From positions 2,914,001 to 2,978,000 of the forward strand of contig OZ004582.1 in NCBI GenBank assembly GCA_963924555.1: DNA of 64,000 nucleotides, in the 5' to 3' direction. The notes beneath the pieces were generated by a model that saw only the letters and a program-made list of their open reading frames with translations, searched no databases and was not told the origin of the DNA. The stretch comes from Crambe crambe. Lineage: Eukaryota > Porifera > Demospongiae > Poecilosclerida > Crambeidae. The translations under genes were made by a program, and so were the position numbers. Shown here piece after piece: positions 1,160 through 39,234 of this stretch (within the stretch, counting starts at the first letter, position 1; each line of letters starts with the position of its first letter).

Positions 1160-1383
1160 ATTAATAATTTATTGATGCAGAATTTGAAACCTGGAAGTCA
1201 GATTTAGAGCGTAGCACAAACACCAGATATATCAAATCCAGTGGAGTGAAAGTAGTGGGCGGAGAAACTACTGTAGCCTGAATTACTTTCCACTTTGTGA
1301 ATGGAGGTTAGCTATGTATAATGTGAGGGTGGTACTTGAGACAAGTTAAAGCTTAATTACCACAAAATCAGGCTGTTATCTGT

Positions 1384-1769: not shown

Positions 1770-2290
1770 AGAGGTGGTGGCTGAGTAGATGAAGGCAGAA
1801 GAAGTGGCTGGTGAGTGGAAGGCTGAAGAAGTGGCGGCTGAATGGAGGGCTGAAGAGGTGGTGGCTGAGTGGAATGTTGAAGAGGTGGCAGCTGAGTAGA
1901 TGAAGGCTGAAGAGGTGGCGGCAGAGTGGAAGGCTGTGGCTGAGTGGAATGCTGAAGTGGAGTAGATGAAGGCTGAAGAGGTGGTGGCAGAGTGGAAGGC
2001 TGAAGAGGTGGCAGCTGAGTAGATGAAGGCTGAAGAGGTGGCGGCTGAGTAAATGAAGGCTGAAGAGGTGGCAGCTGAGTAGATGAAGGCTGAAGAGGTG
2101 GCAGCTGAGTAAATGAAGGCTGAAGAGGTGGCAGCTGAGTAGATGAAGGCTGAAGAGGTGGCAGCTGAGTAGCTAAATGAAGGCTGAAGAGGTGGAAGCT
2201 GAGTAGATGAAGGCTGAAGAGGTGGTGGCGGCTGAGTAGATGGAGGTGGCAGCTGAGTAAATGAAGTCTGAAGAGGTGGCAGCTGAGTGG
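1770..2290 (-). repeat. 30-bp minisatellite encoding a Pro-rich decapeptide
   Basis: About 17 imperfect copies of a 30-bp unit (plus-strand core gaagaggtggcagctgag) lie in tandem. On the minus strand one frame reads as the decapeptide STQLPPLQPS over and over, and a second frame reads as AATSSAFIYS. An irregular unit near 2163-2180 carries about four extra bases and swaps the two frames, so whichever frame was coding is broken there. The Pro/Gln/Leu frame continues to the right into non-repetitive sequence (DVGYNGALHFVKPP near 2380) and is the more protein-like of the two. The multiple-of-three unit length suggests it grew while translated. This is inference. Confidence 0.75.
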
Positions 2291-2399
2291 AAGCAAGCAG
2301 TGGCTGAAAGGTATTAGTTACTGTAACTGGAGAGCTGCTGGGAGGTTTGACGAAATGTAATGCACCATTGTAACCTACGTCCAATCTTTTAATCGTGAA

Positions 2400-3240
2400 T
2401 GGCCTGTTAAAATATATTGGATGGCTATAACAGTATTTAAAACTAATAGCTACTTACAGAATTTCCTTATGCATGATCTCATACATCATTTCCAACCTTA
2501 TACGGGGGATATCATTCTATAAAAAAAATTGCACTGTGATAGCTGCAGAAAAATAGTGACCATTATTATAGCTACCTGTGAGTAGTCTGGTGATTTTCCA
2601 CACAAGATGTAATATGCTGGTATGTGCCAGTATTTCCAATTGAATTTTTCCCCAGTTTCTTTGCAATAGCTTTCTTCAATAAAAGAACTGTGTGGAAAGT
2701 CAGCTGCAAATTATTTCAGTATAGATTTTTTTTAAATCTCACATTATCCATGGCAAGGTCTGTGTACTGCTCATTGGACTTATCGAATCTTGATAGTAGA
2801 TAGTTTTATCCACAAAATTGACAACCTATTATAAATCTAGCTAATTATGAACAAGTACATTATGCATAGCTACCATCAGGTGAATAGGTATTATCCATGC
2901 TTGAAAAAAATGAAGTTTATTCTGTAATTTTAGAGTTGTTAGCTATAGGATACATATAATAACATTCATATAGCTAGCTATTACCCTTTTGCTGAACTTG
3001 ATGCAAGTTTTCTGAGTTCCATTTTTTTTTCAAGGTTGCAACAAAAAATGATGACAGAGGATACACTTTGATGTTCTATGCAATGATAAGCATGGCATTA
3101 GCATATCTACAAGTCATACATGCATAATATTGAACTTACATAAACCTTTTTTAAATGCATTGAAATCAATATACAGTAAGTATTGCTAACCTAAGGGTTA
3201 TAAATATAATTAATATAATTATTTTATCATTACTTTAAAC
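2400..3240. other. No gene recognised; possibly intronic
   Basis: A/T-rich sequence with homopolymer runs. No coding stretch or repeat was recognised on either strand. It lies between the Pro-rich block and the last clear exon of the USP-like gene, so it could be intron or 3' flank of that gene. Confidence 0.4.
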
Positions 3241-5449: not shown

Positions 5450-6190
5450 AATACACAGGCACAAATAGAAAAAAGTACAGAAAAAAATTTTTTTTTCACA
5501 AAAACACTAATGTGGCTTACAACTAGGAAGAATTTTAAAAGTCTTGAGCTTTGACAGTAACTTTGTTCCCATTAGACTAGAAAGGTCAAAGTACAATGTA
5601 AAAGGTCGACGGCAATGATTCCTGTTATTAGTCGCTTTCCTGAGTCAAACAGGCTGAACAAGAACAGACCCAGTTATATATGTAGATGGCTCATATGTCT
5701 ATAGAAAGTAATGAGCTAAGTCGCAGTGTCGCAGCTTTCTAGTTCTACAGTGCTTCAGAGCGATCTCTAATTAACGCACACCAACTCGCTGCCACGCCCA
5801 TAATGATTGGAGGCTGAAAAGAGATTTAGCAAAGGAAAAAAGGACAGTGGATTTAGCTAGCTGGATAACTAAAAAATAAAAGCTTAGTTAAGCAGGCAAA
5901 ATCATGCTTCTTAGGCCATAGCTACAGTGGAACAATTGAACCATTTTATGACTCTATAAACATTTTTATAAGAATAAAGCAGAGAAGTTAGACTTTAATG
6001 TAGAGTGGGGATGAGCACCGAATGAGAAGTCAGCATTGCAAAAAAAATAATTAATTTTCAGGCTTCAAATAATATGGCTTGCAATAAAATTTCTAGCTAA
6101 TTCATGCATGGTTTTTGCCTGACCAATGAAAATTTGCTTCCTCCACCTCTGTAGATGAACAGTGTTGAGTTCATGGCACTGGATAAGAAC
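5450..6190. other. No gene recognised upstream of the USP-like gene
   Basis: This should hold the promoter or the missing first exons of the USP-like gene. On the minus strand I could not find its catalytic Cys box. Short direct agctagct-type runs occur, as in many places in the window. Nothing else was recognised. Confidence 0.4.
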
Positions 6191-10498: not shown

Positions 10499-11535
10499 CT
10501 ACTGAGTTATTTTCTTGATTAGCGATAACTTCAGAATTGCACAATTTAGGCACTTTATCTTTGTTATTAAGAATGTCTGATAGTACTTCCTGCTGCTCAA
10601 CTGAAGTTCTCTTGTAGCTTCTAACCCCTTCAAAAGCTGCTCATCTACTCCATGCTGATATAGTCTTGTTGCTGTTGTGGCACGCAATGAATGATCTTAA
10701 ATCCTTCTATCCCAGCAGCTGTACATAACCTGGAGATGGTTTTCGTCAATGTGTTATGTCCAAGAGGTTTTCTTGTATACCACAGATCCATGGTAGGATT
10801 AGTAGCAGGCTGCAAATAAAATGAATTAATCTCGTCAGGACTGTCAGGGCACAACTTGATGTATTTCTTGAATAGTCGTACAAAACACCTTTCTGGATTG
10901 TCAGTGTTTGCATGATGCAATACAATTTTTGGCTTGATATTCCTTCCTTTAATTCCCCCTGGCCTGTTTTTGGATACATCTTCTGTGTACTGTAAATATG
11001 GTCTTTCTCCTTTGTTCTCTATAAGCTGTATTTGACATGGTCTTAATCGAAGCTGTCTATGTTCTCTTCCACTTCTTAGTGCAAAATAAAGACCATTACA
11101 AAAGATCATAGTGTCGAGCAAGGTCTTAGGGTTTTTATCTCCAAGAAGTCCTTTCTGTCTAGACTTGGTGGAGGAACTGGATGGCTCATTCTTAACTGGA
11201 AAATGAATGGAGCTGACAATTGAGCTGGTACTAGGTTGTGGAAGGGTGGAACTGGCCAAAGAAGAAGCTTGGGCGGGGCTGAGTTCAGGGGTGGAACTGG
11301 ATTCTAGCTGTTGGCTGAGTTCCAAGAATAAGCTGGTATATTCTTGTTCAACACCACTAACTTCCTCCTCCTCCATTGCAGCGGCACTATTTTTTGGTTC
11401 AACTGCTACGTCCTTACATATGCCCCAAGCACTGCACCAGGGTTCGCCGAGGCAGGCAGGGTTGCCGCAGAAGAGGGAGGGGCTATCGAGTTCATCCGTA
11501 ATATCTCTCTTTTCCTTGTCATAGAAGCGCAGCAT
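10499..11535 (-). pseudogene. Crypton-like tyrosine recombinase (DUF3504/KIAA1958-type), frameshifted
   Basis: The first 270 codons hold an acidic Ser-rich linker and then the recombinase-like part: LYFALRSGREHRQLRL (region of the first catalytic Arg), FYLQPATNPTMDLWY, PLGHNTLTKTISRLCTAAGI. The frame then slips by one base near 10,690; the next frame carries the conserved block LRATTATRLYQHGVDEQLL, followed by SSRKYYQTF near the expected catalytic Tyr. Together these are the features of Crypton-type DUF3504 proteins, tyrosine recombinases that move circular DNA elements in eukaryotes; some have become host proteins. With one frameshift and few other scars the copy is relatively young. It lies inside the interval assigned to the hAT element and is probably a later insertion. 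Crypton ends have no long repeats, so its borders cannot be seen. Confidence 0.7.
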
Positions 11536-11579
11536 TGCTTGAAAATTTTTTGAAAAGGTTGCTATGCAATTTTCTAAAT

Positions 11580-11723
11580 TAGTTAGACACCTCGACCAAC
11601 GGGATCTACGGTCTATAGAAACCCTCAGGCCCTTGGTAGCGCCCTCGCTGCGCTCGGGTCACTACAGCCCAAGGGCCTCGGGTTTCTATAGACCGTAGAT
11701 CCCTCGGTCTCGGTGTCTAACTA
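11580..11723. mobile_element. Palindromic MITE-like element, 144 bp
   Basis: Left arm from 11,580 starts tagttagacacc and includes gggatctacggtctatagaa. The right arm ends at 11,723 as the reverse complement. Arms of about 55 bp differ at a few positions and flank a G/C-rich loop (gcgccctcgctgcgctcggg). No open frame fits inside. The family is unknown and no convincing target duplication is visible. Confidence 0.75.
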
Positions 11724-18479: not shown

Positions 18480-20880
18480 CTCATACTGCTGGAGACACTG
18501 AGTCGGAAACTGGAGGACTGTGAAAATGAGCTGGAATTAGTCCGAGCGAGCTGGCAGTGTGAGAGGGATTCTGTAGAGAAACTGGAAGGTGAGAAAAATG
18601 ATTTGATAAGTGAAGTAAGCAGACTTAGAGAAGAGGTAGACCGAGAGAAGGAGAGAGTGCGACTACACGAAAGCTGGATGGAGGAATCCAGATTGGTGTT
18701 CTCCGAGACATTTGAACAACATTTGGAGCACCTTCGCAGAGTACTGAAACAACTGAGGGAGGCCGGACTTAAACTGAAGCCTTCAAAGTGTCACTTCATA
18801 TGCCAGGAGGTCCAGTATCTTGGATATCTGGTCACAGCAGATGGCATTCGACCTAATGCAGAGCGGATAGGAAGGAATACAGAAGGAATACCAAGCTCCT
18901 GAGAATGTGAAAGAAGTACGACAGTTTTTGGGAATTGCATCATACTATCGACGATTTGTTCGAGGTTTCGCAAAGATTGCTCAGCCCCTCCACTCTCTAA
19001 CACAAAAAGGAACACCATTCTGCTGGTCACAACAATATCAAGAAGCATTCACAGCTTTGAAGGATTGCTTAACACAAGCTCCCATCCTTGCCTATCCAAA
19101 TTTTGTGCTAAAGGCTTGGGGTTGTGCTCTCGCAAGAACAAAATGACAAGAAGCTTCATCCTGTGGCATATGCAAGTAGAGCCCTGACACCAGCTGAGAA
19201 GCGATATGCCATCACAGAGCTGGCAGTTGTATGGGCAGTTAACCATTTTCATGCATATCTTTATGGTCATGACGTGATTATCTATACAGATCACTCAGCA
19301 GTGAAGGCTGTTCTCCGGACCCCGAACCCCAGCGGCAAGCATGCCAGGTGGTGGAGCAAGGTCTTTGGCAGTGGAGTGAGGAAGCTGGATATTGTATACC
19401 GTCCAGGAAGAGAGAATGGGAATGCAGATGCCCTATCACGAGCTCCCCATGGGGAACCTCCCTCAGAAGCAGCTGTTACCGAATCCCAAATCAATGCTAT
19501 CAGTAGTGCTGACACTGAACTGGAGCAGCTATTAGAGGTTGAACCAGTACCCTCTAAGCCAGATGACTTTTCAGTTGAGCAGAGAAAAAGACCCCAGCAT
19601 TCTGGAAATCTTCACATACCTGTCTACAGGAGAGTTGCCAGAGTGTCCGAAGAGAAGGAAGAAGATAGTGTGCCAAGCACCACTCTTTTCATTAGTTGAT
19701 GGAGTGCTGTACTTCCTTGACTCAAAGCGAGGAAGACCGGAAGAGATGGTTGTGCCAAGTCAGATGACGCAGGCCCTCATCGAAGAGAACCATAGTGGTC
19801 CAATGGGTGGTCATTTTTCAGGTGAACGGCTGTACAAGGCAATGGCTCGTCACTGGTGGTGGCAGGGAATGTATGGTGACGTTGTCGCTCATTGTTCAGC
19901 CTGTCCCCAGTGTGCAATCGTCAATTCATCGGGACGAGTGAACAGACCACCACTTCATCCTATACCTGTCCAGCGAGTGTTCCAAATCATCGGAGTAGAC
20001 ATCATGGACCTCCCGAAGACTGAAGCAGGAAACAAACATGTTGTCGTGTTCCAGGATTTCCTATCCAAGTGGCCTCTGGTTTTCCCAGTTCCGGACCAGA
20101 AGACTGTTAGGATTGCCCGTCTCCTAGCAGAGGAAGTAATACCCCTATTCGGAGTGCCGGAAGCATTACTGTCTGACAGAGGTACAAATCTTCTATCACA
20201 CCTCATGCTGGACATCATTCAAACAAGGAGAATGGGTTCTGACATATTTTCCTCAGGATGAGACTGGAGGAAACAGGAAATTGAGTCGACCCTGGCACGG
20301 ACCTTATCGTATTACCTCACTACAAGATCTGGACATCTGTATGACAACAGTCTATTTCCCTCAAGATATTGAGATTAGAGTACATCAATCTAGGGTAAAA
20401 GCTTGTCCCCCTAACTTTCCATCAGGGTTCTACTGATATGGAGGTAGGAGGCGTGGCCCTGGGCGTCCATCTAAGTGGGTGGAGACACTTCTTTGAACCA
20501 CCCTTCCTGAAGGAACTATATATCTCCTGGCGAACCTGGGACCGAGGTCACAGAATCTGAGACTGCCGATTCCGAGGAAGGACTGGAAGATTTCGACATC
20601 CCAGAACCTGAGACTGTCGATTCTGAGAAAGAACTAGAGGTTTCTCCTCCTAAACAGACTGTGACACTAACTCCCTGCAAGTACCCCCTGCAGAGTCGTT
20701 CGGGACGAACTCAATAAAGGCGGGGGTGATGTAACAATGTTATATTTCCATCCTTAATTATGTAATTTGTGACGTCATATAATCACGTGATTTTGGGGTC
20801 TTGCTAAAATTCTATAAGATTGAAACATTGAAAGTGACTCGAGTTACCATGCAAGATCTTGCCTGCTATGACACTTTATT
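18480..20880 (+). mobile_element. Ty3/Gypsy LTR retrotransposon fossil (pol part and probable 3' LTR start)
   Basis: Parts in order: a heptad-rich coiled coil (about 18,490-18,700); reverse transcriptase C-terminal part (GLKLKPSKCHF, YLGYLVTADGI); the RT-RNase H join (VRQFLGIASYYRRFVRGF); RNase H (HPVAYASRALTPAEKRYAI, VIIYTDHSAVKAVL, NADALSRAP); integrase zinc finger and core (HWWWQGMYGDVVAHCSACPQC, GVDIMDL, GVPEALLSDRGTN); and an integrase C-terminal region (WHGPYRITSLQD). A purine-rich tract (about 20,715-20,727) is followed by tgtaaca, the probable start of a 3' LTR. The copy is broken in several places and the 5' LTR and most of gag are not seen. Moderately old. The coiled coil directly ahead of RT sequence is unusual and may be a rearrangement. 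Confidence 0.85.
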
Positions 20881-21149
20881 CTGATGACCAAAGTTTTATT
20901 TTTACTATTTCGCTGTATATTTTCAATGAAAAAAAAATTCGTGGACATCGCAAATCAGACTTGAAACTTTCTCACACAATTGCCTGGGAGGATTTAAGAG
21001 GATTTTGGATATGTCACTCTACATAAAATTTGATACCAAAATTTCTGATTCAATCCTAAATCTACCATACTAATATAGACAGGAATCATAAACTGATCAA
21101 GTGAGGTAACAAATCAGTAAAGGTTTACTAGTATTGTTTGTATTATCAT

Positions 21150-21520
21150 TGCATGTGTGTTTCATAGATGGCAACTAGTAATTCATGGTGCAGTCGATGG
21201 ATTCTCGAGAGTTCCAGTATACCTGCATTGTTCTACCAACAACGAGGCTGCTACTGTGTTAGCACTGTTTAAAGAAGCTGTGTCCACCTATGGCCTACCA
21301 TCACGTGTTAGGTGTGGAGAAAATGTTGATGTATCGATGTTTATGTTGAGCCACTCCCTCTGTGGACCTGGTCGTGGTACTGTGATAGTAGGGAAGAGTG
21401 TACATAATCAAGTCTCTATCACGACTTGTTCAGTTATATGGAAAGCATTCAGTTGCTGGATCCAAACAATGAGACACACCTCTTCTGTCTGCACTATGTA
21501 TATATTCTGTGTATAAATAG
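21150..21520 (+). pseudogene. IS3EU-type transposase fragment
   Basis: The frame reads [55 protein letters not shown]. This is the same integrase-like core as the transposase of the 8.1-kb element at 31.1-39.2 kb (there [49 protein letters not shown]). The second catalytic Asp and the Glu block are altered, so this is a dead fragment of a related copy. No terminal repeats are visible nearby. Confidence 0.65.
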
Positions 21521-22810
21521 CTGATGAAGACAACTACTGAATGCCCCATTTCACAGGAAAATACGAGTGTTTTGTTTCCCCTTTGGATAACAGTACCTGT
21601 GCTATGGGATTGAATTGATTTTTTTGAGAAGACTTTGAATTATGTTCTGCAACATACTATATAATTAAATTTACGGAATTTAACCCTCTCGCACATGCGC
21701 ACTGAGGATTATAGTCAGCTGTGCCAGATTATACATGAGTGACCTCATTGACTCGAACAAGACGATCATATTACTAAATAAGTGACCTCATTAATACCTT
21801 CAGTGACCTTGTAAATTCAGAGCAATCTCTCTGACACCGATAAGTGTTCTGCCTAACTTGCTTTTTATTATACTAGACAGCTGCTGCTCTCTCTGGAAAA
21901 AAGCCATACTTACTGGGATTAGGTTGCTGCTTCCACAACTTTTAGTACCTTTTTCATTGATTTCTGTAACAACTTTCCTTGTTGAATAAATCTAAAATTG
22001 TCACTGTGGACTTAAATCTAAATCTAATTTTGCAGGTCATAGGACTGTATAAACTAAAAACTCTTCTTTCTCTTCTATCCTTACTCTACAGAAATGAAAA
22101 AATTCTGTTTTGTTTTTCTAGACTCGAAGAAAATCTCACCACTCTTTAGGGATCTTTATTTGTGAAGAAACCTTCGTTCATAACCCTTTTCCTCTTCCCT
22201 TGTATGATCTTTGATACAGTATGCTATCAAGGTAACGATCCCAAACAAAGTCATCTTTGGATGTGTCCTGCAACTGTTGCAATATGAAAGGTAGGATCCG
22301 TATAATGTGCTAGAGTATTCGAGGGCAAAAAATGGACCACAGCCGCACCATCGAATATCTTGGAATCAAAAGCTGGGCATGAAGGCTGATTGCTGGGATG
22401 AGAAGAGATTTTTTTTCAAGCCTGATCTTGTCAAGAAGGTGGAGTGATGTTAGATATGACTTCACGCAAGCTATTGACCTGTTTCATAAACAATTCCTGA
22501 GTTGAGTAGCCTTGCTCATGTTGTTGATTGCTGTGTTCTTTTGATTCAAGGAATGATCCTTCTGCATTTCAAAGGAGGATGATGGCTGGTCCTGAGCAGG
22601 CAAGAATATTGACAGAGTTTGAAGACCTCTCTATCAACCCTACCATTTTTAGCTATGGGATAATTGCCATAGCGAGTTCTTTGCCATCTGGATGCAATAA
22701 ACTTGAAGAAAATCTGCCCACCACAGGTGCTAGTCTAGATAATCACTATTTCAAGATAACTGAGCTGTGCTGAGGAGGAGTATTACAAGCAACTTTTGAA
22801 GTCCAGGTAT
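21520..22810. other. No gene recognised
   Basis: A/T-rich stretch with short open frames only, one at 22,528-22,773 reading EDLSINPTIFSYGIIAIASS. Nothing identifiable on either strand. Confidence 0.4.
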
Positions 22811-22815
22811 GGTAC

Positions 22816-23168
22816 TTACTTTTCTAAAGCTTGGAATAAACATGTTAAAATATGGTATATTTGCATGCAGATGTAGAATATGGAGTTTATGTTCTGGTAT
22901 TCCTGCTCTTTCTCCTCTTTGATATTCAGTTTGAAATCTATCCACTTGCGTAGGTACACCTGAGCCGGCATGTATGCTCCTATGCCCTGCTCTCCAAGAA
23001 CCCCAAATCCCACATGAAATTTCCTCAACCAAGGAAGCACATGCTCTTCAAGCATGTGCATCTTTGGGAGTACTGTGGCATGTGGGAACTCTTTCTGATA
23101 GCCAGTCTGGAACTTGTTCAATGAAAGTTAAGTCTATTTCTTACATGGCGCTGCGAACAGCTGACTAA
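22816..23168 (-). pseudogene. Fragment of uncharacterised amplified gene (PKMHMLEEH type)
   Basis: A minus frame reads FPHATVLPKMHMLEEHVLPW and RKFHVGFGVLGEQGIGAYM. The pattern P-K-x-H-M-L-E-[DE]-H ... G-x-G-x-x-G-E-Q-G is one I remember from multicopy sponge and cnidarian proteins of unknown function, perhaps transposase-like. Only this C-terminal-looking block remains. The downstream residues usually reading ESIHA are replaced, so the copy is probably dead. Confidence 0.5.
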
Positions 23169-23189
23169 CTGTTCAAGGAGATGGTTTTC

Positions 23190-24050
23190 GTGTTCTGACA
23201 AGGGGACTTGGTGTTTCTCTAGGGAAACCCTGACGATTGTGGATAACCTCGGGTTATCGGTAAGAGAAGCATTTGATGATTTCCTCGTGTCCCTTCGAGA
23301 ATTGGCCAAGACTTGTAAGTTTTGTTCTGAAGAGTGCACCCATAAGAACATTGAAGGTCTCCTGGATGGAGATACCGTGGAAACCCTCCTCCGTGAGAAA
23401 GACCTTTCACTCCAAGATACTATTATCAAATGTCGTGGCCAGGAGGCCGCAAAGCGACAACGTGCAGATGGTTGGAAATCAAGGTGAATTATCCCCCCAT
23501 ATTAGGAAGACACAGATTTATTCCCCTCGTGCACGTGTGTGTCCAGGTTGTGGGGCAGATTTTCATCCAGGTGGGAGGCGGCAATGCCCTGCCTACACCC
23601 TGACATGAGTTGGACATTTAGCCAAAGTCTGTAGGGGACAACGATCAACACAACCAACAAAATTAACTCAACCATCAACCAATGTTATATCTGTTCCAGA
23701 CATAAAGACAAATCTATCACCAACAAGGGCTGACAAGAGCGTTGAACATGCTCAGAAGACATGAGTATCCTGCCAGACTCGGGGGCAGATATATCTGTAG
23801 CTGGCACATCTACCCTTACCCAATTTCGGGAACACCGTGACAATTTGCTCCCTTCCAGCCTGACCCCACATGCTGTGAACAGCACATCAATGAAGTGAAA
23901 GGAACTATCCTTTCATGGAAAGCAGCTAAAGGTCTTAACATATTACCGCAATCATACCCTTATCCTGTTAGTCGTATCACTGTCAAATAACTAAACTCAG
24001 AGATTCCAACAGCAGATGAGATTATGGCTGAAATTATGCGTATTATTTAA
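23190..24050 (+). mobile_element. Gypsy-type LTR retrotransposon fossil (gag end and protease)
   Basis: Gag end (EAFDDFLVSLRELAKTCKFC, IIKCRGQEAAKRQRADG), a zinc knuckle-like stretch (CPGCGADFHPGG), a retropepsin-like block (LPDSGADISVAGTSTL) and the beginning of pol (AKGLNILPQSYPYPVS). Domain order agrees with Ty3/Gypsy elements. The copy is broken in several places and no LTR is recognised. It is distinct from the 18.5-20.9 kb fossil, although both could come from one element family. Confidence 0.75.
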
Positions 24051-24400
24051 TTTGTTTTCAGGCTCTCTGTAAAAAGGGAGAGGGAAGAACTGACTATGCA
24101 TGTGTGGATTTTTTACCCAACTTTGGGTAATTTGTATTCTTGTAATTTTCTGTTGCCTGAATGTCATCATACATCATTAGTGAAAGAGTCGAGTATAGTA
24201 TGGCTAAATCAGAAGTGCTATAGTCTCGTGGTTTCTCTGGTGCGATTTCACCCTTGAGAGGCTAGCTTTTAACAGCTCAAGTTTATTCTGACAGTCTATT
24301 AGGTTTTCGTGTGGCTAGCTGCCTACTGGCTTCAGTAAGAGTAGATTTGTTATCAGCCAATTCTTTCTCTAGACAGTAAAGTGTCCTACATAGCGTAAGT
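24050..24400. other. No gene recognised
   Basis: Short interval between the Gypsy fossil and the pogo-like element. It may hold the pogo element's left end. No inverted repeat could be paired. Confidence 0.35.
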
Positions 24401-29639: not shown

Positions 29640-30362
29640 CAGCTTCACACAAATCCCTCCGCATGTGATATCTGATGATATCGAGTGAAATACTCGTGAA
29701 ATCTTGGACCACCTGAAGGAGCATAAGGACTCTCTCGTGAATTCCATATAGATTTAAACTTTGAGAACTTTTCATCAATAGATGAACTCTCTACTAGACC
29801 GATCTGGAAGGTATTGTCAACCCGCTTCCCAAAGATGTCGGCAATAAATTCACTTGCTTCTTTTGCAGGAATTCCATAATTTTTTTTAGCCTTTCTTTTA
29901 TATTTCGCTTGAAATGAATAAAACATCGTAGGTGAATAGCATATGGGAAATTGTGTGAGAAGGCTTCTTCAAGTGCTTTATCACCATCAGTACCAAAAAT
30001 CTTTTAAAAGCTCTCGTTTACAGCCGATTAAAGGCAGCAAAATCAACCTTTTGATGAACTAGGATAGGGCCTGGGTGCTTCCGTTCTTCAGCATCATAAT
30101 TATGGTGATAAGTTATAGGGTAACAAAACTGTCCCAAGGTTGTATCTACAGTCACCACACAGAATTGCCAGTTATTAGTACCAAATCGAACCAAATCTTT
30201 AAGTTGCCATTCGTTACTAAGCACAAATGGTGCAGCCTTTACATCTTGAACGTAAACTGAAGCAGAACCTTGAGCTAATTTACATTCCAACATAGCTAAT
30301 GCTAAAAAGGGTCTTTTTCTGATGCGAGTAGCTAATTTGCCTGCGATCCCGGGGAAGTACAC
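29640..30362 (-). pseudogene. Second MULE-type transposase fragment
   Basis: A minus frame at 30,018-30,362 reads LVRFGTNNWQFCVVTVDTTL and GQFCYPITYHHNYDAEERKH then PGPILVHQK; the T-V-D-T-T block fits the first catalytic Asp of a MULE transposase of a different clade from the copy at 0.1-1.2 kb. A second frame (29,645-29,926) reads KNYGIPAKEASEFIADIFGK and IWNSRESP, as in the region after the catalytic core. The middle is missing or frameshifted and no ends are visible. Moderate confidence in family. Confidence 0.55.
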
Positions 30363-30764
30363 TGGCTCCTGCAGCTATAAGCTCATGACATGGTAACCGC
30401 TTCCTTTGACTTATGTGTACTTGCTATATCTTTGTTTTGTTGTTGAAGAGGTTCGGAAATATCATGCGGCTTGATTTTTATTTCAACTTCTGGTCCAGTA
30501 AACATGTACTGCAACATAGCACGTTCATTATTTCCACCTGTAATGGGTGTCCATTTATAAGGTGCTGCATGAATTCACATCCAAGTTATTTTCTTAATGC
30601 ACATCAATACAATGGGGACGCTATATTACAATTTGATCAGTGATTGGTACAGCACACATACTTTTAATATCAATGATAAATCTATATGTTGCATGTGTAT
30701 AGTACCTTCTAGTATGGTGATCCTTCTTGAATAACAGGCTTTCCGGAAGATACACGTATTGATC

Positions 30765-31117
30765 CATTAGAGAAAAGTCGAAAGAAAGTGGTTTTAGTAC
30801 CTTTAGTTCCAATACTCCCCCGATTCCTGTTGTGCTAGCATCGGTGCTGAGTATAAACTTCTTGGTGTGATCTGGTGCTTTCAGAATAAGGTGAATCCAG
30901 TATTCTTGATTTGAGGTCCTCGAAAATGGATTGGTGTGTAGATGTCCAGTTTAGGATGTCAGGTTGGGTCTTCTTAGTCAAATCTGTGAGTTCTGCTGTC
31001 AATGTCGAGTATCCTGGCACGAATCTCCTATAGTATCCAGTGATTCCTAAGAATGAACGTAACTCCTCTTCATCGATGGTGTGGGGAAGTTCTTGATAGC
31101 TTCCAACTTAAATGGTC
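30765..31117 (-). mobile_element. Gypsy-type retrotransposon fossil, part left of the IS3EU insertion
   Basis: Minus-strand coding strings VPGYSTLTAELTDLTKKTQP, LNWTSTHQSIFEDLK and STDASTTGIGGVLE fit the RT-RNase H join and the start of RNase H of a Ty3/Gypsy or related element. It is broken. It abuts the 6-bp duplication at the left end of the 8.1-kb element, and the matching upstream RT part lies on the other side (from 39,235), in the same orientation, so the DNA transposon inserted into this fossil. Confidence 0.7.
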
Positions 31118-31123
31118 CTTCCA
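31118..31123. repeat. Target-site duplication CTTCCA, left
   Basis: Six bases immediately before the TAT of the left terminal repeat, identical to 39,229-39,234. A 6-bp duplication is the reported value for IS3EU elements. Confidence 0.85.
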
Positions 31124-31152
31124 TATGGCACGCCGTTTGTAACAAAAATCTA
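31124..31152 (+). repeat. Left terminal inverted repeat, 29 bp
   Basis: Starts TATGGCACGCCG and ends aaaaatcta. Exact reverse complement of 39,200-39,228. The next bases (aagcc...) no longer match the other end. Confidence 0.95.
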
Positions 31153-31187
31153 AAGCCACATAATAAGTATCATGCAGCGTGTGCAAG

Positions 31188-31270
31188 CCTTATTATGCAA
31201 CATTCGTTATTATTATGTAACATGCAGCGCAAACCTTATTATGTAACATTTTAAATTATTATGTAACATG
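31188..31270 (+). promoter_or_regulatory. Left subterminal motif cluster (ttattatgtaacat)
   Basis: Four forms of ttattatg[ct]aacat occur within 83 bases. The reverse complement, atgttacataataa, occurs twice plus a partial copy near the right end. This mirrored arrangement is expected for transposase binding sites. Function is inferred. Confidence 0.6.
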
Positions 31271-31299
31271 CACAAGCCTTATTGCATGTGGCATAGCGG

Positions 31300-33090
31300 T
31301 GCTATGCCAGACTAATGTATAGCTAATAACATCAGAATGAGTTATTTAGCCCAAAAACAAGGGCACAAACAAACAACAAACTCCACCACTCCTATGTCAA
31401 ATAAGAGGAGGGATGTGTGGACAATGGTCTCATCGAAGTACAGGTCATTTTCAAATCTTCTTACCAGGTAGCTATCTGCATCTGCTGTTTTTTCTGTCAG
31501 TCAGCAGACCCAGTTAATTTCTACCCTGAGTTGATTTGGTTCCTGACAGGTGCCAAGCCCTCGGGACTTGAGGCACCAACATACATTTTCAACATGACTG
31601 TGGATGAACTCCAGAGATTAATGGTTTGGGAAGTTAGAGCAGTGCAGGGAGCTGTCCTCAGTCAAGGTTACTTGGCTATAACAAAGAGGGGGATAGAATA
31701 GTTATCCCTGTGGTCCTCATCTGCTTAGGAAACTTAATAAGTAACGAGGTGTGCTTCAATTAATAACTATGGGAGTAGTGCATGTAAGGAAGATAAGCTA
31801 AAAGTAGATTTTATATGCAAAGTGAGCTTAACCAACGCCTATAGGATACAGGATAAAAAAATGGCAGTAAATCTCCATTCATTATTTTTTTGTCAGGACA
31901 AAATATTATCAGAAGCTCTGGCAGCTCAGCATCTTTTCATTAGGAGAGTGGCATTGCACTGCAGAATGCTGGAGAGGCAATGCAGTTCTCAAGAAAGATA
32001 CATATTATAGGTTTTCTCCCTCAATAGCTTAGTTGGAGGACCTCAATTTCGAGCCTTCTACTTTGGTGGTGGGTGTGACCCTTTTTTTAAAGACGATTCC
32101 TGAGGTATGCAAGTTGCTTGAGACATAAGAAATGTACATGGGCTATTATTCTAGTGAAGAGCATACTTGTACCAGGCAAAGTGTAGTCTCTATGGATGGG
32201 ACATCGAGGGACAGAGTACCAGCAGACTATATCAAATCAACACCAGATTCAAAGCTCTCAATATGGCGTGCACACCCACACCAGAAAAGCAAAGCATGTA
32301 TTAAATAGAAACTAAACAAGCAAATGCCCATTGCATACACGTATGCCATTGTCTAGTATATAATAGAATAGAGAACCATGCATTAAATCAACCATCTTTC
32401 TGAGCTCCACTGGTATTTACTGCCTCATAGTTATGCAAATGCATGTACCCTGGGTAAATCACTCTGCAGGAATGTCTTAACAGTCCTGCCAGTAAGGAAG
32501 GCGAAAAACCCACCTGAAGGGGTCCTTCATGGCTGGAAAATATCAGCTGGAGTGCTGCTCTCCCCCATCCACATCAAAGCCATTGAACACCACTGAGGAC
32601 AGTTGCTTCTGTCCTTAAAGGATTGATACCATAATGGGGGAGGGGCAGAGGAATCTATACAAGTTGGTATGGGTCGCCAGATTACTTTGGCACGCGCGCT
32701 TATGTAAGTTCTGGGCGGGGCAATGAGTCCAATGATGAGAATGACATGGTGAGTAATCTCTTTCCCCGTGCATCCTGGTGCATTATATAAATAATAACCA
32801 TAAGCTTATACCTACCTATAGCTAGTTCAGATCTTTCTAGCATATAGCTAAATCAGTGCCTCACTTCTATTCATTCTTCTTAGAGCTACCATACTTGGGG
32901 ATTACAGGTCAGGTGTGACACAAATAAAAATGACTAGACTAATGGATCTTAAACTAAAGTGATCTTAAACTAAAGTGATCTTAAACTAAAGTGAAATTGT
33001 CAATCACAATTCCATTATCTGTCTTTCTGTTGCAGTATTATAAAAGTTATGCAGACATATCAGCCACTTCAATGTTACTAGCTATTCCTG
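31300..33090. other. Left interior of the IS3EU element, no firm gene
   Basis: Short plus-strand open frames only. One at 31,417-31,701 reads LIWFLTGAKPSGLEAPTYIF and VDELQRLMVWEVRAVQGAVL and could be an exon, but I do not recognise it. The rest is A/T-rich. At 32,943-32,990 gatcttaaactaaagt is repeated three times in tandem (unit 17-18 bp). Confidence 0.4.
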
Positions 33091-33254
33091 TGGTAAGGGA
33101 ACCTTCCCTTCATCTAAAATTAGTGAGTATTTATGTGAGGTGTTCAGTACGTACAGGACATTACAGTTGGTATAGTACTTCTGGCAAACCATATCCTCTC
33201 CTCTTTGAGCTTGGTATGTTCTCTCGAGGTGTTGGTTTGGCTTATAATGTGACC

Positions 33255-33600
33255 TTTAAAAATATTGAAAAGGCCCAGAAATTTGCATTGAAGATGTGTC
33301 TGCGTCAGTGGGATTGTGGCTACAATGATCTCCTAGACAAAGCTTGACTGCCTACTCTGAGTAACTGAAGAATGTTTTTGAAGCAATTCACCCTGTTCAA
33401 AATACACACAGGTCTGCTTTATTTCCTGAGTGATGTCTGTTCGTAAAACTGATAGTGCTTAACCAGTTCTGTCAACCACATGTGAAAACTAATGCTTCCA
33501 ACATGTCTTTTACTGTCAACAGTGTTTCAACATGGAACAATCTCCTGGCAGATGCACTGCGGACTCCATACTAGTGACTAGCAAACTAAAATTGTCAAGT
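33255..33600 (+). mobile_element. LINE 3' coding fragment inside the IS3EU element
   Basis: Plus-strand text reads EKAQKFALKMCLRQWDCGYN, then LPTLSN and RMFLKQFTLFKIHTGLLYF, then VSTWNNLLADALRTPY (with frame changes). This is the typical end of a non-LTR retrotransposon protein, after the RT domain (Q+FALK......Y..LL....LP.L..RR...L..LYKI...L), closing with a WN.L motif. It is 5'-truncated and has stops. It probably inserted into the DNA transposon or was carried along. Clade not decided. Confidence 0.6.
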
Positions 33601-34139
33601 TGTGTCAAAATGGAGACAGACCCACTGAGGACAGAATTTCGGTATCTTCTTGTGCGAGTAGGAAAAGCAGGAAGACTGTGAAGCAATCATAAAATACCAG
33701 AATCTTCAAACAGCTCAGCATCAGATGTAGGACTACAGTCACTAGTTACTTTTAAGAGATTTACTCTGCCATTATTTTATGTAGTTATTATTTTTTTGTG
33801 GTTACACACTGGTGTTAGCAGTTACTGCTATTCCTGTGACCCTTGTTTTCAAACATGAATTTTAAAAAAGCGTCCTGTAAATACTTTCTGATCACTGGCA
33901 AGGAACTCTGCCATATCAATGTCCCTAAATTAATGATGATATGGAGGATGATACTCTTTTTGGTTACTTGAACATAATTATGATCGACATTGTTTCAAGC
34001 TTCAGCAGTGAAGAAATAGAAACATACAGAGACAATTTTAATGAGTATCATCTTTGGAATAATATGTGAGGATGGCCATTCATGCATACCAGGTTCCAAC
34101 TCTTTAACCACTACCTCATACAAGAGGATGGCCAAGGTA

Positions 34140-34300
34140 TTTTATATCCCATGATCAACTAGAATATCTTGGATTTACATGGAGTGAAGCAGCCACTGCA
34201 TTGTTAGGAGTATCACGAATGATGCTGTATAAACGTCGCAGGGAGTACATTGTATGGGATGCTAGAAGACAGAGACTGTACACAACTGCCATGGCCATGT
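34140..34300 (+). pseudogene. Degraded HTH of a second IS3EU-like transposase
   Basis: The frame reads QLEYLGFTWSEAATALLGVS followed by RMMLYKRRREY. It aligns with the helix-turn-helix of the intact-looking transposase at 37.8 kb ([35 protein letters not shown]). Similar organisation but clearly diverged, so this is a separate, older copy within the same element. Its DDE core is not visible after it. Confidence 0.55.
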
Positions 34301-34699
34301 GTGTTTCAGCTGGAAAATTTGGTCCTGCTTAATATGACATAGCTACCTTCACATGTAAGGAGTGATGAGTGATCAGAGTATGGTATTGAGGACAAGGGCT
34401 TAGTTCCTGAAGATGCAGAAGCAGTCACTATTCTGCAACAGAACCAATCAGTAAATAATCATGCTAGCTATTAAGATCTACCAAGATGTTGAATTTATGA
34501 AACAAAAAAACCCTGAATTACTTTAGTAGTATGATCAAATATATAATGTTGTGCCCATAATAATAATGTACATGATTACCCAGTCTCAAGGAACAAACTC
34601 TAGTGTATTTTTGATAAAGCAAGTAGACTGTTAAGCTTGTCCAAGTTGTCTCACGTCTCACTGGAATCGCTGCATGCACATCAGTGAACATCACCACAT

Positions 34700-34915
34700 G
34701 AATCACTACATGCCACCTGGCACATAATCACTGCAAATCACCACATGCTGTCACTGGAATCACTATACATTGAGGGATATAACTGAAATATTGAGATACG
34801 AGGGGTATAAGCGATCTCTACTGAAACATGAGCAATCCAAACATGAGATAAATGAAGTGATATAAGCATGAGATAAATGAGCATAAGCAAAGTAATACTG
34901 AGATGAGGGGTATAA
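34700..34915. repeat. Short interspersed direct repeats
   Basis: Forms of aatcac[ct]acatg(c) recur at 34,701-34,770 and catgagataaatga recurs at 34,840-34,880, with gaggggtata at 34,800 and 34,906. They lie directly after the stop of the HECT gene. No function can be assigned. Confidence 0.4.
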
Positions 34916-34921
34916 CCTTAG

Positions 34922-37620
34922 TTACATAGCATCCATTATCCAGGAGTTTTCATCATCACTAAGTACAGAACTGAGTTCAGCAGAAAAATCAAGATACGAG
35001 AGGTATTCTGATGATAGTTCAAGAGTGTAAGTACATGTGTGGCTGATTGGTCTACGTGCTAAACCAGACAACGTATTGAAGGTAATTTTGATGTCATTCG
35101 ATACACACACCGAACTGCCTGTAACAAACCGCAAAAACCTCTGCACTTCATCAGACCTCATATTTCCAATATACTGCTGTAGATAAGAAAATATTCTAGC
35201 CTGCGATTGATTCAATGCTGTAGGTTCTTCAATCATGCTCAATACTTTGGCTGGAGAGGCTGTCAGAGATTTATAGAGGGAATGGAACTCTGTTAAACTA
35301 AAACTTTTCCAGAATGGAAGATGGACAGACGGAATTCCCCCCTTTATCATTGATATAGCAGTCATTGGTTTTACAAGGAATTCATATTTTACCACCTAAA
35401 GTACTTGCTGTCTCAATGTAATGGGGGTAGGGAGTTGTCTGGAACCATACCGGCTAAACAGATTTATAAGCTTTTCCTGTACACCACTACTAAAAATTGA
35501 TGAAGTAATAGTGAAGCATCCTTTCAAGAATGACGATTCCACAGGACTAATACTGTTAGCAAAGGCTTCCATCAAAATAGAGTCTGAGAGATTGCTAAAA
35601 TCCAAGAGCATAGCCGACAGACAAGGGAATGCAATACGCACTGGCAAGTACCCACACTCAAGAAAACCTTGTGATAAGATGCACCCCAATAATGGATAAA
35701 CTGATATATCAGTTTGTGCATGGATTACCGGAGTCAACTGTGAACTTCCATCAAATGAAATTTGGTATGATGCTTTCCAAAAAGCTGCAAACATATCCCG
35801 ACAAAAACCACCGAAATCAATAGCTTTTTCATTCTCGAACTTGATGCGCAGTGGATGTTCTAGAAAGACTTCTTCGTTACGATAGAGTGCCAAAACTTCA
35901 TTATAAATGTTCTTCCTCTTTAATTCATGACAACTTGGATCCTTGATACCTGGCACTGATAATAGGAAGGCTTTTCTGTGAGCAGCATCTGTAAAATGCG
36001 TACATAAAAATTTTTTTTTTAAAGGTAAAGGGTAGCAGCCAAATAAACACCACACGTACACTGGATGGTTTATTGGAGTTTGAACTGATTCTGATTTTAG
36101 TGTACAAGATAAATGAATTATGAATCCCAAAAAACTGCCTCTAGATAGCTGAGCAATTTTAAGACTTGATGCCTCAGCACTTTGGTGATGAGACGCCCAT
36201 CACAGGGAGCTCACCTTGTGTCTCACACAACTTTAGACAGAGAAGGTAATGGTCGGAAGCACAGTGTGCATTATATGGAGTATAAACTGTATATCTAAAA
36301 TGCACCCACACCCTCCAGGATCAGCTCGCTAGATAAACATTACCTTCCTTGAGTATCACCTTGGACATATCCTGTTCCTGAATGCATGCATGCCAAACAA
36401 TCAGTCTAGGGAATGAAATTACACAGTCAATAAAAGCTTACTTGTGGGTCACATGCACGTACTTACCTAGCTAACGAATTATTCATGATCAGATTGCATG
36501 CACAGTATTTTTAAATGATGCACATCATCTCCAGGTTCTCCCCAGTGAAACTGATCAGAGCAGTGCTTGAATACCACTAAATACATTGTTTTAACCACAT
36601 GAAAGAAAATGGGCCCTGATGTTGCACCTCTCCAACACCTTTCGGGGGAGAACCCTGCACCTAATGTGCCAGGTTTTAAAGCAGAGATATAGGCCTATGT
36701 TTACTGTGGGACTCATTCATGCTCATTGCAATTATGAATCTACCTGCACTGATTCCTCCAATAAGAAATACTGCTCAACCTTTTCACTGTTAGGCAACCG
36801 GAATATTATCTTCATACCACTTCCTTCCTCATTCCTGAAAGCAAATTTCTCTTGCAAGGAGGCTTGCATATGCTCAATTTGCTGCATACAAAGGCAGAGA
36901 TAATTAAGTTTACTGTGGCGCAAGTATAATACATAGTTGCCTAGGCTATACACCACTTCTAGGGATACTCCTTGTTTTGTTCAGTAATGATTACCCTTGG
37001 TTCGAATGTCTTGAGGGGGTGGGGACAGGGATTGTTGGGATTGTCAAATCAGAGATGCTTTTGGATTATACCTGCTTCTTGCATTCTTGCCTCCTGTCCT
37101 TCAGTTGGTCTATATGCAGCGATTCCTGGAAAGCAGCATCCACTACTCCCCAAGGGAAGCAGGGTGAGAGTAAGTTTGCTTGGCTTGACACAAGAGCTTT
37201 TCTTTTTTCGTTTTTGTGATGCAAACACACACTCACTGCCAGGATCAAAGCTGCTTGGTAATTTGGGTAAGGATGGAGATGAAGGGAACAGCTTGCCAAG
37301 GGCAGCTGCTTCAGACTTTGTTGGCTTCGTGACCCTAGACACAGCAGTCAACGTGTGCTGGTGAAGGTTAAAAGACTCGCTCTGAAAGTTAGAAAGTAAC
37401 ACAGAGCCACAACCTCTAAATTAGCTAACCCACTCACTTTGTGGCTCAAACCAGAATTTTCTTCAAGTTTGGGCGACGAGTGTAATCTCATCCCCTCCCT
37501 TAACTTGGCTTGAGTCAGTAACATCCACATACCCCCACTTTTCTGTGCATTTCTGAAGGATGAGCCAGATTGGGATAACTTGGTGTCAACGGGAGCAATG
37601 GCTATATCTCTTCCTGGGCA
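34922..37620 (-). CDS. HECT-type E3 ubiquitin ligase with UBX-like segment, cargo of the IS3EU element
   Basis: Predicted exons on minus: about 37,438-37,620 (AIAPVDTKLSQSGSSFRNAQ), 37,072-37,381 (SSPSLPKLPSSFDPGSECVF, KRKKKSSC), 36,744-36,881 (HMQASLQEKFAFRNEEGSGM, KIIFRLPNSEKVEQYFLLEE, UBX-like), and 34,922-35,988, the HECT domain. All quoted borders have GT and AG. HECT enzymes take ubiquitin from an E2 onto a Cys and pass it to a substrate. The N-lobe shows LRIKFENEKAIDFGGFCRDM; the C-lobe shows RFLRFVTGSS and PISHTCTYTLEL with the catalytic Cys, ending NSWIMDAM. One in-frame TAG at 35,396-35,398 (VL*VVKYEF) splits the domain; a C-to-T change at a Gln codon would explain it. It lies head to head with the transposase. 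An exon between 35,988 and 36,744 may have been missed. Confidence 0.75.
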
Positions 37621-37784
37621 CCTCCTTGCCAGCTAGAGAAGAACACCGATTCCAGTTTCATCCACGTGGCACCACTAGTGGAGGCAGGCAAGAAAGAAGA
37701 AGAGAAAGAGGACATCACGCGACCAAAAAATGGCTGAATTTTAACTGCTGGGTTGGAATAGATTCTTCTCTGAACTAAGATCGT
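37620..37784. promoter_or_regulatory. Likely divergent promoter region of the IS3EU element
   Basis: About 160 bases separate the first recognisable HECT exon (minus) from the transposase frame (plus). A shared promoter here would drive both. No TATA box could be identified with confidence, so this rests on gene arrangement alone. Confidence 0.35.
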
Positions 37785-39040
37785 TGGTAGTATTTTGTGA
37801 TAGGAGACGGGGAAGAGCAGATCGCCAGCTAGCTGTCTATGTCGTTGAAAGACTGCAGATCGCAGCTCAGAATATATCTGCTTTCTTGAATCTGCTGAGG
37901 GAAGGTCAGGTGCAAGAGTTACAAGAGTATGCTCAACAAGTGTATCATTTGATGGAAACCATTCATCAACTGATTTTGGACTGGGAGAGGCATATGGAAA
38001 CTCTAGATGCCCAGATGGAAGAGGTGGCATACCATGCTCCACAAATTCACACTGGACGAAGGGGAAGGCCCAAATTTCACATCACTAGTGACCAGTTGCA
38101 GTATCTACGGTCTCTTTCGTTTTCATGGACAGCCATTAGTTCTCTGTTATGTGTTTCACGAATGACGGTATACCGGTGTAGAAAAGCATATGGTTTGCTT
38201 GGAGAGCGTAGAACTGTCCCAAGTGATTCAGAGTTGAGCGAAGTCATCAGAAGATTACACTCAGGAATGCCAGAACTTGGCCAGACATTGGCCCATGGGA
38301 GAATAAGGGCAATGGGCTATCATGTAACTAGGCAACGCCTAAGGCAGGTAATGAGAGCTCATGATCCCCTCAAGAAGGAAGTATTCATGATTGGAGGGGC
38401 CAGATTTTTGGTGTATTTTTATTAGTGTGTACTATAATTATCTTTTAGATGGGCATCATAAGCTGATTCGCTGGAAACTTGTGACCCATGCTGGCATTGA
38501 TGGGTTCAGCAGAATGGTGGTATATATAAGTTGTTCAGCTAACAACCGGTCCAGCACAGTATATGATCTTTTCATTGAAGCCGTGAGGAGATTTTCTTTA
38601 CCTTCTAGGGTTAGGTCTGACCAAGGGCAAGAAAACCGTCTAATCGCATTACATATGATTCGCTATCGTGGCATTGAACGCCGAAGTATGATCGTGGGCA
38701 GTAGTGTCCACAATCAACGAATCGAACGGTTATGGAGGGACCTGTTTCAGAGTGTGCTGAGATTATACTACAGACTTTTTATTACCTTGAGGCCAGAGGA
38801 CTTCTTGATCCTGTTAATGAACTTGATTTATATTCACTGCATTATGTATATTTGCCAAGAATAAGACGTTCATTGGTGCACTTTCAACAAGGCTGGAATC
38901 ACCATGGAATACGCACAGCTGATAACAAGTCCCCTTACCAGCTTTTCACAGCTGGTGCTTTACAACTTCAGCAGTCAGGAATGTGCGCCTTGGACTTCTT
39001 TTCAGATGCTGATGAGCAGTATGAATTAGCTAATAGCTGA
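37784..39040 (+). CDS. IS3EU-type DDE transposase, broken
   Basis: The N-terminal frame (37,784-38,425) reads [20 protein letters not shown], a helical stretch, [20 protein letters not shown], the helix-turn-helix [20 protein letters not shown], and [20 protein letters not shown]. The catalytic frame (38,391-38,864) reads [20 protein letters not shown] (first Asp), [15 protein letters not shown] (second Asp) and [18 protein letters not shown] (Glu). The end (38,732-39,040) reads [20 protein letters not shown] and [17 protein letters not shown]. The three parts overlap in different frames, so at least two frame changes are needed; a 38-base GT...AG stretch at the first join (38,410-38,447) is too short and out of phase to be a convincing intron. 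The gene ends 160 bases before the right terminal repeat, as expected for an element's own transposase. Confidence 0.75.
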
Positions 39041-39099
39041 TATCACTACAAATTGTTTTTTCTCTTTAATATGAATGCAATGTATTGGACTTACTGCAT

Positions 39100-39160
39100 T
39101 GTATGTTACATAATAAAGGATCACTGGATGTTACATAATAAGTTGCTCTGATGTTACATC
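39100..39160 (-). promoter_or_regulatory. Right subterminal motif cluster (atgttacataataa)
   Basis: Two full forms (39,102-39,116; 39,128-39,141) and one partial form (39,150-39,158), the reverse complement of the motif clustered at the left end of the element. Confidence 0.6.
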
Positions 39161-39199
39161 ACATCCTCTCTCTTGATACATTATTATTATTATTATAAG

Positions 39200-39228
39200 T
39201 AGATTTTTGTTACAAACGGCGTGCCATA
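39200..39228 (-). repeat. Right terminal inverted repeat, 29 bp
   Basis: Starts tagatttttgtt and ends CGGCGTGCCATA; exact reverse complement of the left repeat. Directly preceded by a (TTA)n run at 39,181-39,196. Confidence 0.95.
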
Positions 39229-39234
39229 CTTCCA
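39229..39234. repeat. Target-site duplication CTTCCA, right
   Basis: Six bases directly after the right terminal repeat, identical to 31,118-31,123. Confidence 0.85.

What the first reader, a model, noticed from the sequence alone, without database searches (positions are those of the whole stretch)
31124..39228. IS3EU-type transposon with intact ends that carries a HECT ubiquitin ligase gene
Seen directly: 29-bp perfect inverted ends starting TAT, a 6-bp duplication CTTCCA, mirrored subterminal motifs, a DDE transposase and, head to head with it, a multi-exon HECT gene with catalytic Cys block SHTC and a UBX-like segment. Known: related integrase-type transposons (Ginger) carry accessory domains such as OTU, Ulp1 or YqaJ, so ubiquitin-pathway cargo has precedent. 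I do not recall a described HECT ligase in IS3EU elements. Inference: the ligase may act on host defence or on transposase turnover.
Basis: partly seen in the sequence, partly recalled or inferred. Interest (0 to 1): 0.92.

Follow-up and report, generated by a model that had tools for sequence, protein, structure and literature searches.

The report
Transposon lineage carrying a ubiquitin ligase
A jumping gene in an unnamed eukaryotic genome carries, next to its own mobility enzyme, a gene for a ubiquitin ligase; this copy is dead, but a distant relative with the same gene pair suggests that the pairing is a lasting feature of some of these elements.

Summary
The element at 31124-39228 is real: 29-bp perfect inverted ends (TATGG...CCATA), 6-bp duplication CTTCCA, mirrored subterminal repeats, set in a decayed retroelement. 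It encodes an integrase-like transposase (PF24764, E 4.6e-51) and a HECT gene (PF00632, E 2.8e-6). The 'UBX-like' segment was not confirmed. Both genes are broken here.

Decisive addition: L030, an 8,233-bp contig from an unnamed bacterial genome bin, apparently host DNA, holds an unbroken HECT frame 43% identical to the window's, a related transposase 185 bp away, and the same kind of end. Silent sites between the two HECT genes are saturated (11 of 54 four-fold sites identical) while protein is conserved, so the gene was under selection. The head-to-head layout is not shared: L030 is tail-to-tail. HECT is seen in 1 of 4 relatives' contigs with a well-kept transposase.

Best reading: a HECT-bearing IS3EU lineage, a new variant of a known kind, not met in the papers searched (Repbase not readable). 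Function is inferred only.

The parts
31118..31123 (.). left copy of the 6-bp target-site duplication CTTCCA
31124..31152 (+). left terminal inverted repeat, 29 bp, TATGGCACGCC...
   Evidence: same kind of end in L001, L002, L030, L039
31190..31269 (+). left subterminal array, 4 copies of TTATTATG(T/C)AACAT
31270..34921 (.). 3.6 kb without a confirmed gene; holds one decayed transposase fragment (next row)
   Evidence: no Pfam match at E up to 1 in six frames with X at stops
34108..34269 (+). fragment of a second IS3EU-type transposase (helix-turn-helix part), tail-to-tail with the HECT gene, the side on which L030 has its transposase
   Evidence: 44% over 59 aa to the main transposase, E 1.2e-7; 55% over 44 aa to L030, E 1.9e-8
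34922..35977 (-). HECT domain, last large exon; Cys block SHTC; broken by an in-frame TAG at 35396-35398
   Evidence: against UBX:
37072..37131 (-). part of a further upstream exon (FQESLHIDQLK...), like L030 FEESLKIDKLK
   Evidence: 8 of 11 residues, E 0.14, weak by itself
37730..39040 (+). DDE transposase gene (PF24764), broken: stop at 37742-37744, deletion with frame change near 38371, stop at 38388-38390, frame change near 38760-38785
   Evidence: the lesions are my reading of these alignments
39103..39141 (-). right subterminal array, 2 mirrored copies of the same motif
39200..39228 (-). right terminal inverted repeat, 29 bp
39229..39234 (.). right copy of the target-site duplication CTTCCA

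Best explanation
A cut-and-paste DNA transposon of the IS3EU superfamily whose lineage carries, besides the transposase, a gene for a HECT-type E3 ubiquitin ligase. Shown: ends, duplication, both genes between the ends here; the same gene pair beside a matching end in a distant relative; long-term conservation of the HECT protein. Inferred: the transposase binds the subterminal repeat arrays by its helix-turn-helix and joins the TA ends to 6-bp staggered targets; the ligase is made from the element, works in trans, forms a ubiquitin thioester on the Cys of the HTC block, and marks a nuclear protein that limits the element. I rank as its target a host silencing or restriction factor first (about 0.4), then the transposase or the transposase-DNA complex after insertion, so that repair can proceed (about 0.3). 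The copy in the window is a dead member, as both genes are broken; its perfect ends suggest that it arrived late, perhaps moved in trans.
For: Perfect ends and duplication; joined flanks read ...YIDDVAIFSRT|WKDHL... across the junction, left flank RT_RNaseH_2 E 1.2e-5. L030: HECT and transposase frames end 185 bp apart; end TATGGCACGCC...GTAACAAAA at 5880-5903 on the transposase's 5' side; no end-like sequence between the genes above background (best 15/24; 15-16/24 also occurs elsewhere on the contig; flank TATAAG differs from CGGACC outside the known end), so the missing end should lie beyond the HECT gene. HECT was found in 1 of 311 genomes of the order, on the very contig that has the second-best transposase match. 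HECT window-L030: 43% identity, codon positions 51/66/32%, 11 of 54 four-fold sites. Both HECT proteins match Pfam HECT; their profile matches AREL1 E 4.4e-5 and RSP5 5e-4. Ends agree with published IS3EU ends TA..TA and usual 6-bp duplications (PMC10045372, passages) and TAYGG..CCRTA (PMC12730594, section).
Against: Only one element has both ends in view; the other end of L030 is off the contig. Gene orientation differs between the two. L002 and L003 show no credible HECT in the downstream DNA on their contigs; no HECT in the rest of the bin that holds L001-L003 (one search had no positive control), and none around the transposase remnant at 21166-21506 (19600-24400). The Cys block aligns with solved HECT enzymes only in weak second segments. 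No transcript, no activity, no structure: both models were too poor to use (pLDDT 35 and 38). Source organisms of window and L030 are unnamed. No HECT tree is possible with two sequences; a 10-row transposase tree does not group the two HECT-bearing loci (2 changes; 10% of bootstrap trees).
Confidence: 0.75

Rival explanations
1. Chance capture: one element, or two independently, picked up a member of a multi-copy host HECT family; the gene has no role for the transposon.
For: The two layouts differ (head-to-head in the window, tail-to-tail in L030); two of four transposase contigs show no HECT in view; the two HECT-bearing loci are not grouped by the transposase tree. I recall, without a call, that such HECT genes are numerous in some animal genomes.
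Against: Both are of one HECT type with the same C-terminal end SWIMDA(I/M), similar upstream exons and a shared splice position; both lie beside related transposases and ends.
Confidence: 0.2
2. Mosaic: the window element is two IS3EU elements fused; the old one had transposase and HECT tail-to-tail as in L030, and a second transposase came to lie at the right end. This concerns layout and is compatible with the best explanation.
For: A second transposase fragment lies at 34108-34269 on the plus strand, on the side of HECT where L030 has its transposase.
Against: Only a match of about 59 residues remains; no extra ends inside the element.
Confidence: 0.4
3. The HECT ligase acts on the transposase itself: turnover, or dismantling of the strand-transfer complex, like ClpX on MuA (recalled).
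For: The Ginger authors proposed that ubiquitin/SUMO enzymes take part in transposition (PMC2836005, passages).
Against: No test; the idea of recruiting p97 through a UBX domain is not supported.
Confidence: 0.3

Closest known systems
IS3EU/GingerRoot superfamily (PMC10045372, passages only)
   Same: TA..TA ends, 6-bp duplication, integrase-like DDE transposase without an HHCC zinc-finger hit
   Different: 'HECT' occurs 0 times in the main text of PMC10045372, PMC12730594 and PMC9587614
Fungal IS3EU with TET/JBP dioxygenase and alpha-kinase genes (PMC12730594, passages and section 3.1.3)
   Same: Ends TAYGG..CCRTA, 6-bp duplications, accessory genes, one of them opposite in orientation to the transposase
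   Different: Accessory enzymes are a dioxygenase and a kinase, not an E3 ligase
Ginger1 transposons with OTU or Ulp1 domains (PMC2836005, passages)
   Same: Integrase-related transposase with ubiquitin-pathway cargo
   Different: Cargo there removes ubiquitin or SUMO and is part of the transposase; here a conjugating enzyme in a separate gene; Ginger1 has 4-bp duplications (PMC10045372)
HECT E3 ligases (RSP5, AREL1 as solved relatives)
   Same: Pfam HECT match, HTC block, N-lobe match
   Different: Distant: best PDB E 4.4e-5 with a two-row profile; upstream part matches no Pfam family

Membership tests
IS3EU | TA..TA termini | tested here: met
   TATGG...CCATA at both ends
IS3EU | 6-bp target-site duplication | tested here: met
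   CTTCCA twice; one copy only
IS3EU | IS3/IS481-like DDE transposase, no HHCC zinc finger | tested here: met
   PF24764 above cut-off; rve E 1.5e-6 but below its cut-off (28.8 of 32.6 bits); no Integrase_H2C2 match on the N-terminal piece
IS3EU | position in a tree with reference IS3EU sequences | not testable with these tools
   Repbase not held
Ginger1/Ginger2 | HHCC zinc finger (Ginger1); 4-bp (Ginger1) or 4-5-bp (Ginger2) duplication | tested here: not met
   no H2C2 match, 6-bp duplication; defining values from PMC10045372 passages
HECT E3 ligase | Pfam HECT above the curated cut-off | tested here: met
   window 27.7 and L030 28.6 bits against 23.9
HECT E3 ligase | catalytic Cys in the C-lobe HTC block | tested here: met
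   SHTC lies in the Pfam-matched stretch; SHTC/AHTC line up with RSP5 and AREL1, but in segments that are weak by themselves
HECT E3 ligase | ubiquitin ligase activity | not testable with these tools
   needs biochemistry
UBX domain | detectable UBX profile or structure match | tested here: not met

The most novel reading that the evidence does not exclude
An old two-gene IS3EU lineage in animals uses its own HECT E3 ligase as a counter-defence or transposition factor, and is a source of dispersed HECT genes in some animal genomes.
Probability: 0.35. Interest if true: 0.85.

Novelty: new variant of a known kind. Interest (0 to 1): 0.66.

Why it matters
Transposons with ubiquitin-removing cargo are known; one that carries its own ubiquitin-attaching enzyme as a separate, conserved gene would make the old guess that the ubiquitin pathway takes part in transposition directly testable, and could explain repeated HECT genes in some animal genomes as transposon passengers.

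Tried and rejected
Whole-genome search of the source: no genome is held. Viral contigs: 8 of 8 scans gave no relative. Phage records with the L030 transposase core and plasmid records with L030 HECT: no match. One genome-contig scan with a degenerate transposase motif gave 3 contigs, all from one sponge-symbiont bin (contigs under 3 kb are not held there). HECT in that bin: none with Pfam HECT (no positive control), a poor match with the window piece (E 0.055), none with L030 HECT. Window HECT in 369 genomes of the class: one weak match (L033, E 4.5e-4) that no Pfam family supports in the frames scanned, rejected. Two-row HECT profile in 398 genomes of the phylum: 0, which shows little without a positive control. 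Transposase alignment in 369 genomes of the class at E up to 1e-15: 1, the known bin. Structure prediction twice, both too poor to search. A possible plus-strand HECT scrap at 31481-31579 (E 0.005) did not recur with L030 HECT as query, rejected. The 15/24 end-like match at L030 3272 was taken as background: 15-16/24 occurs elsewhere and the flanks do not match (compared by eye). The first L030 exon (N-terminal part) has no clear counterpart in the window, so the window gene probably also lacks a part. Remnants left out of the 4-contig count: L031 (G249 contig 103, E 3.5e-6) and L032 (G001 contig 133, E 1.7e-7); neither shows HECT.

Literature: searches (listings; in 13 I saw 30 of 53, in 86 20 of 74, in 104 5 of 9,828). 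Passages only of PMC10045372, PMC12730594, PMC9587614, PMC2836005, PMC6027436 and PMC12062965, plus one short section of PMC12730594. Of 35 papers that name IS3EU I looked into 3. So 'not in print' is not claimed beyond these searches, and Repbase entries could not be read.
Full report
Observation. The ends are as described. 31124-31152 and 39200-39228 are perfect inverted repeats of 29 bp, flanked by CTTCCA on both sides; the first 28 bp occur nowhere else in the window with up to 3 mismatches. A 14-base motif, TTATTATGTAACAT, stands four times inside the left end (once with a mismatch) and twice, mirrored, inside the right end, and nowhere else in 64 kb at up to 2 mismatches. Removing the element and one CTTCCA gives a reading frame ...SAYIDDVAIFSRT|WKDHL... 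across the junction; I read this as the YxDD box of a decayed Ty3/gypsy reverse transcriptase (box recalled; Pfam supports only RNase H in the left flank, RT_RNaseH_2 E 1.2e-5 and below its cut-off, and nothing of the kind in the right flank). So a 6-bp staggered insertion is well supported.

Genes. On the plus strand near the right end lies a transposase with the integrase core PF24764 (E 4.6e-51 and 6.2e-22 on two frames) and a weak helix-turn-helix match (HTH_23 E 0.001, below its cut-off). On the minus strand lies a HECT gene: the C-terminal piece alone passes Pfam's cut-off (27.7 bits against 23.9), the whole read-through spans profile 32-289 of 306, and phmmer against solved structures finds RSP5 (E 0.0017), mainly through the N-lobe; the line-up of SHTC with RSP5's Cys block is a second segment that is weak by itself.

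State of this copy. Compared with relatives, the transposase has a stop soon after its likely start (37742-37744), a deletion with change of frame near 38371, a stop at 38388-38390 and a change of frame near 38760-38785 (my reading). In L001 and L030 a phase-1 intron precedes the first catalytic Asp; in the window the corresponding donor is unclear, so whether the Asp codon survives splicing is open (my reading). The HECT frame has a TAG at 35396-35398. So both genes look dead here, while ends and duplication are perfect; either the element was moved by another copy's transposase, or the assembly has errors. I cannot tell which.

Relatives. No genome is held for the window and I had no eukaryote collection, so I looked for host DNA caught in bacterial genome bins. 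A degenerate motif of the transposase found 3 contigs in the collection of 84,980 genomes, all in one bin, a Cycloclasticus symbiont of the sponge Poecilosclerida sp. M (L001-L003). A Pfam PF24764 search of the 311 genomes of that order gave matches at E up to 0.001 in 72; outside that bin only one was strong, G249 (E 6.7e-76), the next best being 6.7e-10, of bacterial insertion-sequence type by my reading. HECT was found in 1 of the same 311 genomes: G249, on the same contig.

L030 (G249 contig 78, 8,233 bp). HECT, plus strand, open frame 2123-3238; transposase, minus strand, in several open pieces, the last ending at 3424; the end TATGGCACGCCACTAGTAACAAAA at 5880-5903 (minus), about 260 bp from the likely transposase start. 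The HECT frame has no stop and I saw no lesion in the transposase pieces; the 5' part of the HECT gene runs off the contig. Against the window's 29-bp end, that of L030 agrees at 23 positions, L001 at 22, L002 at 26, L039 at 25. L001 and L030, like the window, have short repeat arrays just inside the end, each with its own repeat unit (by eye for L001). No end-like sequence lies between the two genes in L030 beyond background (15/24), so the far end should lie beyond the HECT gene, if the element has two ends. That L030 is animal DNA is inference from its GT-AG introns and its TAGCTA density, 3.0 per kb against 2.2, 3.3 and 3.6 in L001-L003; the window has only 1.0 per kb, so this says nothing for a sponge origin of the window.

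Selection. Window and L030 HECT share 43% of residues over 354 columns. Identity at codon positions 1, 2, 3 is 51, 66 and 32%, and at four-fold sites 11 of 54, no better than chance; the transposase cores of the same pair show 65% of residues and 4 of 28 four-fold sites. Hence both proteins were kept by purifying selection over a long time. This does not by itself prove that the HECT gene was in the transposon all that time.

Gene structure. The upstream exon QIEHM...LPNSEKVE...EESVQ of the window resembles ELHRL...LPNSERIE...SPAK of L030 and ends at a GT donor at the same place; FQESLHIDQLK resembles FEESLKIDKLK. These short matches are individually weak (E 0.30 and 0.14, and among many chance matches) but lie in the right order and strand.

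Layout. In L030 transposase and HECT are tail-to-tail, with the transposase start beside the end (so too in L001). In the window they are head-to-head, with the transposase tail beside the right end. Yet the window also has a scrap of a second transposase at 34108-34269, plus strand, on the tail side of HECT. The simplest account is that the window element is a mosaic: the L030-like order survives as scrap plus HECT, with a second transposase at the right end. This is inference.

How general. Of 4 contigs with a well-kept transposase, 1 shows HECT (L030); L001 stops inside the transposase; L002 and L003 show no credible HECT in what follows on the contig (one match in L002 at E 0.40, with a stop in it, lies within the transposase and was dropped). 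Two remnants, L031 and L032, were not counted. L002 has an open frame of 441 codons without introns and is the most distant from the window of the three relatives compared (54% in the core). A 10-row transposase tree does not group the two HECT-bearing loci (10% of bootstrap trees). So the HECT gene marks some, perhaps not all, of these elements.

Mechanism. Shown: what is encoded and that it was conserved. Inferred: a trans-acting E3 ligase. By analogy with fungal IS3EU elements that carry a TET dioxygenase thought to undo silencing, and an alpha-kinase opposite to the transposase (PMC12730594, passages), I put host silencing or restriction factors first; by the Ginger authors' proposal that ubiquitin and SUMO enzymes take part in transposition (PMC2836005, passages) I put the transposase complex second.

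Novelty. In the searches made I met no report of a HECT gene in an IS3EU element: no paper held 5 of 6 terms, none all 5; 53 papers hold HECT and transposase, of which I saw 30 listed and none seemed on topic by title; 4 and 9 papers for two other combinations. 'HECT' does not occur in the main text of the three IS3EU papers that I searched. Repbase could not be read, and its entries may hold such genes. I file it as a new variant of a known kind.

Noticed in passing
window 21166-21506 (+): Decayed remnant of another IS3EU-type transposase (PF24764 E 6.2e-27 and 3.5e-6 in two frames); no HECT match within 19600-24400.
   Followed up: partly
window 533-1168 (-): MULE-type transposase domain, E 4.6e-9.
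   Followed up: no
window 10648-11658 (-): DUF3504 domain, E 1e-29; often seen in tyrosine-recombinase (Crypton-type) elements, recalled.
   Followed up: no
window 29800-31116 (-): Weak Mutator-type transposase matches beyond the retroelement flank (E 0.0012, below cut-off).
   Followed up: no
L039 3667-3690: Perfect match to the end pattern, by its orientation the left end of another element that runs off the contig, in the sponge-symbiont bin.
   Followed up: partly
L002 2661-2684: An end that points away from the transposase on the same contig, as if two elements lay side by side.
   Followed up: no
L001-L003, L039 and L030: Eukaryote-like transposon contigs inside bacterial genome bins, apparently contamination by host DNA; useful as a view of transposons of sponges and other hosts.
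   Followed up: partly
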